From contig JAFAZB010000078.1 of the NCBI GenBank assembly GCA_019240015.1, forward strand, positions 1-40,749: 40,749 bases of DNA, read 5' to 3'. This DNA is from Solirubrobacterales bacterium (GTDB taxonomy: Bacteria > Actinomycetota > Thermoleophilia > Solirubrobacterales > Solirubrobacteraceae). The notes below the pieces were generated by a model, which had not been told where the DNA came from, searched no databases, and was given only the letters and a program-made list of their open reading frames with translations. A program made the translations under genes and the position numbers. How positions within the stretch are numbered: position 1 is the stretch's first letter; the number at the start of each line of letters is the position of its first letter. Shown piece after piece: positions 5,929-16,741 of this stretch.

Positions 5929-6705
5929 GTGATCATCAAGAAGAGCCCCGCGGAGATCGAGCGAATGGCCGCGGCGGGGGCGATCCTGGTCAAGACGATG
6001 AACCTGCTGGCCGCCAAGATCCGCCCCGGCGTGAGCACGCACGAGCTCGATCAGGCCGCCGAGCGCTTCATCCGTTCCCAGGGCGCGGAGCCGGCGTTCA
6101 AGGGCTACCGGGGCTTCCCGGGCTCGATCTGCACCTCCCCGAACTCGATGATCGTGCACGGCATCCCCGGCCCCTACAAGCTCGCACGGGGCGACATCCT
6201 GTCGGTCGATGTGGGGGTGGTCCTCGAGGGCTGGGTCGCGGACGGCGCCCGCACGTTCCCGGTCGGCCCGGTCACCCCGATCGCCCACCGGCTGCTGGCG
6301 AGAACCGAGGAGGCGCTCCACATCGCGGTCGGGCAGTGCCGGGCCGGCAACCGCCTGGGGGACGTCTCGCACGCGATCCAGAAACACGTCGAAGCCGCCG
6401 GGCTGGCGATCGTCCGCACGCTGGTGGGCCACGGGATCGGGCGCAGCATGCACGAGGATCCCCAGATCCCCAACTACGGCCGCCCGGGCAGCGGGCCCTG
6501 GCTCGAGGAGGGGATGGTGCTGGCGGTCGAGCCGATGGTGACCGCCGGCCGCCACGCGGTCCGGGTCGGCGAGGACCACTGGGCGATCTACTCCCAGGAC
6601 GGCTCGCTGGCGGCCCACTTCGAGTTCACGATCGCGATCACCGGCGCCGGCCCACGGATCCTGACGCCCTGGCACGAGGCGGGCAACGGGCGCGCCGCGG
6701 CTTAG
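5929..6705 (+). CDS. map: Type I methionine aminopeptidase
   Basis: [61 protein letters not shown]. Confidence 0.97.
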
Positions 6706-6720
6706 TCCGGGGAGCATGCC

Positions 6721-6792
6721 CGCCGGCGCGCATGCGCGCCGGCGCCGGGCCGCGCATGCGCGGCCCGGGGGGTCGGCGCATGCGCCGACCCC
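6721..6792. repeat. Array of three contiguous perfect 24-bp palindromes, each centred on GCGCATGCGC
   Basis: 6721-6744 CGCCGGCGCGCATGCGCGCCGGCG; 6745-6768 CCGGGCCGCGCATGCGCGGCCCGG; 6769-6792 GGGGTCGGCGCATGCGCCGACCCC; each verified base by base. Confidence 0.95.
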
Positions 6793-6795
6793 TGC

Positions 6796-6801
6796 TAATA
6801 T
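6796..6801 (+). promoter_or_regulatory. Putative -10 element (TAATAT) of an internal promoter upstream of rpmJ
   Basis: AT-rich hexamer TAATAT in very GC-rich context, directly after the palindrome array; -35 would fall inside the third palindrome. Confidence 0.5.
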
Positions 6802-6807
6802 GAGCCG

Positions 6808-6937
6808 TTGCGCTTGCAGCGCAAACCCCACCTTGCGCTGCAGGCTAATCCTCGGCGCGGTAGCGGCGACTGCACCGGTCGCCAGAGCCGCGCCGAAGGA
6901 ACCACTGAAGATAACTCACGACGAGAGCGAAGCGAGC
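6808..6937 (+). promoter_or_regulatory. Structured 5' leader of rpmJ-rpsM-rpsK-rpsD-rpoA with competing hairpins
   Basis: TTGCGCT-TGC-AGCGCAA (6808-6824) versus TGCAGCGCAA-loop8-TTGCGCTGCA (6815-6842); then TCGGCGCGG/CCGCGCCGA outer stem (6852-6896) enclosing GGCGAC-N7-GTCGCC. Confidence 0.5.
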
Positions 6938-7051
6938 GTGAAAGTAAGACCGTCGGTCAAGCCGATGTGCGAGAAGTGCAAGATCATCCGCCGCCACGGG
7001 CGGGTGCTGGTGATCTGCTCGAACCCCCGTCACAAGCAGCGGCAGGGGTAG
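6938..7051 (+). CDS. rpmJ: 50S ribosomal protein L36 (zinc form)
   Basis: GTG start; (M)[36 protein letters not shown]. Confidence 0.96.
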
Positions 7052-7056
7052 CGGCG

Positions 7057-7440
7057 GTGGCGCGCATCTCGGGCGTGAACATCCCCCTCAACAAGCGGGT
7101 TGAGGTTGGTCTCACGTACATCTACGGAATTGGGCGCTCGCGCTCGTGCGAGCTGCTGGCCAGGGTGGGAATCGAGCCGGACCGCAAGGTTCGCGACCTC
7201 ACCGAGGAAGAGGTCGTCAAGCTGCGCGACCTGATCGACGGCTCGCTGATGGTCGAGGGCGACCTGCGCCGGGAGCGCTCGCAGAACGTCAAGCGCCTCC
7301 AGGAGATCGGCTCCTACCGCGGCCTGCGCCACCGTCGCGGCCTGCCAGTGCGCGGTCAGAACACCAAGACCAACGCGCGCACGCGCAAGGGACCGAAGCG
7401 GATGCAGGTGGCGGGCAAGAAGAAGGCCGCCAAGAAGTGA
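7057..7440 (+). CDS. rpsM: 30S ribosomal protein S13
   Basis: GTG start; (M)[29 protein letters not shown]...[27 protein letters not shown]. Confidence 0.97.
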
Positions 7441-16719: not shown

Positions 16720-16741
16720 GCGGGGGGCGATCGCCCCCCGC
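16720..16741. terminator. 22-bp perfect palindrome just after ligA stop (GCGGGGGGCGATCGCCCCCCGC), possible terminator-like stem
   Basis: Perfect self-complementarity 5 nt after ligA TAG; no U-tract. Confidence 0.5.

What the first reader, a model, noticed from the sequence alone, without database searches (positions are those of the whole stretch)
6721..6792. Three back-to-back perfect 24-bp palindromes sharing a GCGCATGCGC core
Read base by base, 6721-6744, 6745-6768 and 6769-6792 are each exactly 24 bp, perfectly self-complementary and directly abutting, with a common GCGCATGCGC centre but different outer arms. Because each arm pair differs yet stays complementary, the symmetry seems to be what is maintained, suggesting a multi-site operator for a dimeric DNA-binding protein, cruciform-forming DNA, or a tandem RNA hairpin stack. 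The array sits between map and rpmJ, directly upstream of TAATAT, so a bound protein would cover the -35 region. I know of no described element of this form at this site.
Basis: partly seen in the sequence, partly recalled or inferred. Interest (0 to 1): 0.8.

Follow-up and report, generated by a model that had tools for sequence, protein, structure and literature searches.

The report
Dispersed triple-palindrome repeat, REP-like
The three back-to-back DNA palindromes are real and are one of about 22 copies of a short repeat, apparently undescribed, scattered between genes in one bacterial family; its letters drift, but the two halves of each palindrome change together so that it stays a perfect mirror, which raises the question of what keeps it that way.

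Summary
They are not a map-rpmJ-specific operator. The same genome holds about 22 such arrays (15 with three GCATGC cores at exactly 24-bp spacing; reversed-pattern control 0). In the order, 18 of 232 genomes carry them, all in one Solirubrobacterales family. At map-rpmJ, 24 other same-genus loci lack the array, so it is a lineage-specific insertion.

Across 215 units, outer arms are 49% alike between units but 98% complementary within a unit. On 59 distinct arrays, 99.0% of stem cells pair; 528 cells carry changes on both sides, against 4 G-U cells. Orthologous arrays in related species show paired changes on both arms. Two loop substitutions and one loop insertion leave arms intact. Units within an array are always dissimilar (0 of 192 close pairs; 12.7 expected).

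Best reading: a dispersed, REP-like, non-coding hairpin-DNA element, probably mobile, whose arms are kept matched at DNA level (template switching in hairpins, or a structure-specific enzyme). The Y1/RAYT transposase is missing from 16 of 18 carriers, so it is not a canonical REP system. Effects on map or rpmJ are untested.

The parts
6721..6744 (.). palindromic unit 1, CGCCGGCGCGCATGCGCGCCGGCG
   Evidence: perfect 24-bp palindrome; folds as 10-bp stem with CATG loop
6745..6768 (.). palindromic unit 2, CCGGGCCGCGCATGCGCGGCCCGG
   Evidence: perfect 24-bp palindrome; folds as 10-bp stem with CATG loop
6769..6792 (.). palindromic unit 3, GGGGTCGGCGCATGCGCCGACCCC
   Evidence: perfect 24-bp palindrome; folds as 10-bp stem with CATG loop
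6707..6726 (.). imperfect extra GCATGC-centred palindrome (two mismatches in ten pairs) overlapping unit 1, centre 16 bp before that of unit 1; possibly a remnant unit
   Evidence: sequence and repeat D2/I4; a similar extra core 16 bp from the last unit in array L020
6793..6801 (+). TGCTAATAT, extended -10-like motif of the rpmJ operon, next to the array
   Evidence: TGCTANNAT is kept in nearly all same-genus loci, which lack the array
5929..6705 (+). map, methionine aminopeptidase; its stop codon ends 15 nt before the array
   Evidence: Pfam PF00557; ORF
6941..7051 (+). rpmJ, ribosomal protein L36
   Evidence: Pfam PF00444

Best explanation
The array is one copy of a short, non-coding, dispersed repeat: usually three abutting 24-bp palindromes with central CATG, between weakly conserved ends (GG[G/T]A on one side, AACAGC on the other). 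It is REP-like and was probably inserted between the map stop codon and the rpmJ promoter in this lineage. Each unit can fold into a 10-bp hairpin with a CATG loop. The arms mutate, but a change in one arm is matched in the other. The near absence of wobble intermediates points to upkeep at DNA level. The most likely cause is template switching or mismatch correction within the single-stranded hairpin during replication, or renewal whenever the element is copied by an enzyme that reads hairpin shape plus CATG. Shown: dispersion, presence or absence at orthologous sites, paired arm changes, freer loops, unlike units within an array, restriction to one family. Inferred: mobility, the correction mechanism, the unknown enzyme. 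Any effect on the map 3' end or the rpmJ promoter is taken as a by-product and is untested.
For: About 22 arrays in this genome and arrays in 17 relatives, all of one family. Array absent from 24 other same-genus map-rpmJ loci; another array shared only by sister species G151 and G152 and absent from 19 orthologous loci. Identical 72-bp array at two unrelated gene pairs (L016, L026). Conserved ends over 71 arrays, score 176 against 26 for outer flanks. 99.0% of stem cells paired, covariation 0.812 against 0.178 shuffled, 528 two-sided changes against 4 G-U cells. Orthologous pairs differ by paired changes (6, 4 and 2, against 0, 1 and 1 other). Loop changes with intact arms. Template switching is a documented route to perfect stems (PMC8794818).
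Against: No mobilising enzyme identified; Y1_Tnp missing from 16 of 18 carriers. No target-site duplication seen. At clpX-valS, arrays lie at the same place in several species and may be inherited or independent. Template switching acts on all inverted repeats and does not by itself explain why these are so perfect. The location next to stop codons (60 of 73 distances at most 20 nt) would also fit a 3'-end RNA function.
Confidence: 0.6

Rival explanations
1. RNA-level function: the three tandem hairpins are 3'-end structures (transcription terminator, RNA stabiliser or insulator between genes) kept by selection on the folded transcript.
For: 60 of 73 distances to gene 3' ends are at most 20 nt, and 22 arrays lie between convergent genes. 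RNA fold is exactly three hairpins, -69.2 kcal/mol, z -4.6.
Against: Only 4 G-U cells against 528 two-sided changes, and G-T is not over-represented among departures. No T-run follows the array on either strand here. 11 arrays lie between divergent genes. Most related genomes lack arrays altogether.
Confidence: 0.2
2. Protein operator: a dimeric regulator binds the palindromes and covers the -35 region of the rpmJ promoter.
For: The array ends 3 nt before TAATAT; a TANNNT box lies within 20 nt of the array in 14 of 33 gene-start-facing sides, 5.7 expected.
Against: Arms are only 49% alike between units, which a fixed half-site would not allow; array absent from the same promoter in 24 other same-genus loci; many copies lie between convergent gene ends.
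Confidence: 0.05
3. Canonical REP / REPtron: GTAG-tagged palindromes moved by a RAYT (Y1) transposase.
For: Intergenic, multicopy, palindromic; perfect-palindrome REPs exist (PMC8266576); GTAG stands at the left junction of 8 of 71 arrays.
Against: Y1_Tnp missing from 16 of 18 carriers; the tag is not fixed; stem sequence is not conserved.
Confidence: 0.05
4. Duplex DNA sites for a shape-reading nucleoid or supercoiling protein, or cruciform-forming sites.
For: Strict Watson-Crick symmetry without wobble; the DNA strand folds into exactly three hairpins; intergenic placement.
Against: Copy number ranges from 0 to about 22 within one genus, unlike a general nucleoid site; short GC stems with a small loop are poor cruciform nucleators (general knowledge).
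Confidence: 0.07

Closest known systems
REP / BIME elements and REPtrons (GTAG-tagged; PMC8266576, PMC3733652)
   Same: Short intergenic palindromic repeats in multiple copies, hairpin-forming, often combined; some REP groups are perfect palindromes.
   Different: No fixed GTAG tag, no Y1 transposase in most carriers, three abutting units without spacers, stem sequence not conserved while symmetry is near perfect.
CGTC-tagged REPs (PMC3733652)
   Same: Palindromic repeats without a dedicated transposase; unlike partners preferred in most dimer families, as here within arrays.
   Different: CGTC tag absent (0 of 142 junctions); CGTC repeats have conserved stem consensus sequences.
MITEs
   Same: Non-coding, dispersed, intergenic, present or absent between relatives.
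   Different: No terminal inverted repeats enclosing a unique core and no target-site duplication seen; made wholly of small palindromes.
Inverted repeats with active maintenance (C. elegans PMC1803023; Nematomorpha mitochondria PMC6649704)
   Same: Symmetry better conserved than sequence; template switching or repeat conversion invoked.
   Different: Those are long inverted repeats at single loci; here they are 24-bp units in a dispersed bacterial repeat family.

Membership tests
REP (GTAG) / REPtron | short palindrome in multiple intergenic copies | tested here: met
   about 22 arrays, intergenic
REP (GTAG) / REPtron | conserved GTAG tetranucleotide before the palindrome | tested here: not met
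   GTAG at the left junction of 8 of 71 arrays; GGAG 9
REP (GTAG) / REPtron | RAYT / Y1 transposase in the genome, flanked by the repeats | tested here: not met
   PF01797 missing from 16 of 18 carriers, with working positive controls
REP (GTAG) / REPtron | conserved stem sequence within a genome | tested here: not met
   outer arms 49% alike between units
CGTC REP | CGTC tag at one end | tested here: not met
   0 of 142 junctions
MITE | terminal inverted repeats and target-site duplication | tested here: inconclusive
   no duplication apparent in aligned flanks; occupied and empty sites too diverged for exact boundaries
Intrinsic terminator | GC-rich hairpin followed by a T-run | tested here: not met
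   hairpins present but no T-run on either strand in the window sequence
Intrinsic terminator | transcript 3' ends at the element | not testable with these tools
   no transcript data
Operator of a dimeric regulator | conserved half-site sequence at a conserved target promoter | tested here: not met
   array absent from 24 other same-genus map-rpmJ loci; arms variable
Known structured RNA family | match above the Rfam gathering score | tested here: not met
   no match reaches its gathering score in 6500-7300

The most novel reading that the evidence does not exclude
A class of bacterial mobile DNA recognised by shape rather than sequence: an unidentified enzyme of this family copies or inserts the three-hairpin element and in doing so rewrites one arm from the other, so arm sequences are free while symmetry, the CATG centre and unlike neighbours are enforced.
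Probability: 0.3. Interest if true: 0.85.

Novelty: new variant of a known kind. Interest (0 to 1): 0.62.

Why it matters
The elements are a natural record of compensatory evolution: many paired substitutions with almost no intermediates, in small replicate units, some at orthologous sites of related species. That makes it directly testable whether hairpin-templated correction, rather than selection on a folded RNA, produces covariation, which matters because covariation is commonly taken as proof of functional RNA structure. They may also point to an unrecognised hairpin-acting mobile system in Solirubrobacterales.

Tried and rejected
(1) Same architecture with another core: the control pattern CGTACG x3 gave 19 hits in G168, but they form one uniform, non-palindromic 24-bp tandem repeat at one place, probably protein-coding. 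A class-wide sample of 399 genomes had the pattern only in family f1. (3) Phage carriage: 23 viral-contig stretches, none of the same form. (4) RAYT association: PF01797 missing from 16 of 18 carriers. (5) Loss of SbcD as a marker of carriers: no genome of 32, carrier or not, reached the curated cut-off, so it does not discriminate. (6) Rfam: nothing above gathering score. (7) Papers describing such repeats in Thermoleophilia or Solirubrobacterales: none found. (8) A fixed type for each unit position: only weak. (9) Isolated GCGCATGCGC sites in this genome: most lack extended symmetry and were left out. (10) My first look at the orthologous map-rpmJ region picked the wrong frame in several loci; redone with rpmJ as anchor.

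Full report
Observation. The window holds three abutting, perfect 24-bp palindromes at 6721-6744, 6745-6768 and 6769-6792. They are the longest palindromes in the window, and the shared GCGCATGCGC core occurs nowhere else in it. Upstream is map, whose stop lies 15 nt away; 3 nt downstream is TAATAT, then rpmJ and rpsM. RNA and DNA folding both give exactly three 10-bp hairpins with CATG loops.

It is a dispersed family. In the same 3.15-Mb draft genome, three GCATGC cores at exact 24-bp spacing occur 15 times; the reversed pattern gives 0. Adding 23-bp spacing, pairs and a unit with a changed loop gives about 22 arrays. Core matches outside arrays mostly lack extended symmetry. Among 232 genomes of the order, 18 carry arrays, all in one family and four genera. 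In a class-wide sample of 399 genomes only this family has them. Viral contigs have none of this form.

An unbiased look. About 735 kb of G152 and G140, chosen as contigs that carry arrays, were scanned for palindromes with any core. They show 10 arrays of three or four units, almost always 24 bp apart and centred on CATG. One unit has ACATGT in place of GCATGC. One unit has a CACG loop (L328), and one has an insertion in the loop while both arms stay complementary (L339). An array in this genome (L215) has a CGTG loop. The arms are kept and the loop is freer.

Covariation. Of 215 units (160 distinct), 184 are perfect, against about 2 expected when arms are shuffled among units. Outer-arm identity is 49% between units and 98% within a unit, and departures concentrate at the outermost base pair. 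The arrays were found by GCATGC cores, so conservation of the core itself is partly by selection of the sample; the arms were not used in the search. On 60 aligned exact triples (59 distinct), 99.0% of stem cells pair, the covariation score is 0.812 against 0.178 for shuffles and at most 0.143 for slid controls, and 528 cells carry changes on both sides against 4 G-U cells. Orthologous arrays show it directly: L017/L243, L215/L237 and L251/L260 differ by 6, 4 and 2 paired changes and by 0, 1 and 1 other. G-T is not over-represented among departures. This is unlike wobble-tolerant RNA evolution and suggests upkeep at DNA level; that last step is inference.

Units within one array are never alike: 0 of 192 pairs share 8 of 9 outer letters, against 12.7 when units are dealt anew within each genome. 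Avoidance of cross-pairing, or deletion of like neighbours, would explain this. Unlike partners are also preferred in most REP dimer families (PMC3733652).

Gain and copying. At map-rpmJ, 24 other loci of the genus lack the array, and nearly all keep TGCTANNAT. In genus g18 one array is shared only by the sister species G151 and G152 and is missing from 19 other orthologous loci. The same 72-bp array stands at two unrelated gene pairs (L016, L026), and one core-to-core stretch of two units stands at three places (C408, C443, C514). Flanks aligned over 71 arrays show GG[G/T]A on one side and AACAGC on the other, score 176 against 26 for flanks further out; the window's own flanks fit this only weakly. 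At the region between clpX and valS (genes named from their translated ends), G126, G120 and G000 carry arrays 3-4 nt from a conserved TANACT box, G127 has a variant palindrome there, the other same-genus loci compared lack it, and G140 of another genus has an array between the same genes. Insertion and spread are the simplest reading. The enzyme is unknown: Y1_Tnp is missing from 16 of 18 carriers.

Context. 60 of 73 distances to gene 3' ends are at most 20 nt. Contexts are 28 tandem, 22 convergent and 11 divergent. On sides that face a gene start a TANNNT box lies within 20 nt in 14 of 33 cases, against 5.7 expected. Gene models come from a simple codon score, so single distances are approximate. 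The pattern fits an element that fills the space between stop codons and -10 boxes.

Mechanism. Template switching between inverted-repeat arms is documented as a way to keep stems perfect (PMC8794818). Inverted repeats better conserved in symmetry than in sequence are known in Caenorhabditis (PMC1803023) and in Nematomorpha mitochondria (PMC6649704). I favour a dispersed hairpin-DNA element with such correction, or with renewal at each copying event. RNA-level 3'-end function is the main rival. An operon-specific operator is unlikely.

Comparison. REP systems are nearest. Perfect-palindrome REPs exist (PMC8266576), but the GTAG tag (8 of 71 left junctions), the CGTC tag (0 of 142 junctions), the Y1 transposase and a conserved stem sequence are not met. 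It therefore works like a REP-type small mobile repeat without passing the membership tests. No paper describing it was found in the searches made; the library is not complete.

Noticed in passing
window 6852-6896: A stem-loop in the rpmJ-operon leader (GGTAGCGGCGAC...GTCGCCAGAGCC) recurs in nearly all same-genus loci; the only Rfam hint is Scr3202, 28 bits against a gathering score of 52. Possibly a ribosomal-protein leader.
   Followed up: partly
window 6705-6941: infA, which often lies between map and rpmJ in other bacteria (general knowledge), is not found between them here or in the same-genus loci read.
   Followed up: no
G000, G120, G126, G127, G140 (loci L215, L236, L237, L378, L248): The clpX-valS intergenic region holds arrays or a variant palindrome in several species, next to a conserved TANACT box: a hot spot or old inheritance.
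   Followed up: partly
32 genomes of the family, carriers and non-carriers: No genome reaches the curated cut-off for SbcD (TIGR00619), a hairpin-cleaving nuclease subunit; weak partial matches only.
   Followed up: partly
L339:3179-3220 (G140:C21): A unit with about 16 extra nt in its loop and both 12-bp arms still complementary.
   Followed up: no
L344, L346, L347 (viral contigs): 24-bp tandem repeats with GCATGC cores, including one 22-bp palindrome (GAGACAACGCATGCGTTGTCTC); a different, uniform repeat in phage-like contigs.
   Followed up: no
window 16720-16741: A lone perfect 22-bp palindrome with a GCGATCGC core, GCGGGGGGCGATCGCCCCCCGC.
   Followed up: no
G168:C3:459735-460532: Uniform 24-bp tandem repeat carrying CGTACG, probably protein-coding; unrelated to the arrays.
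   Followed up: yes
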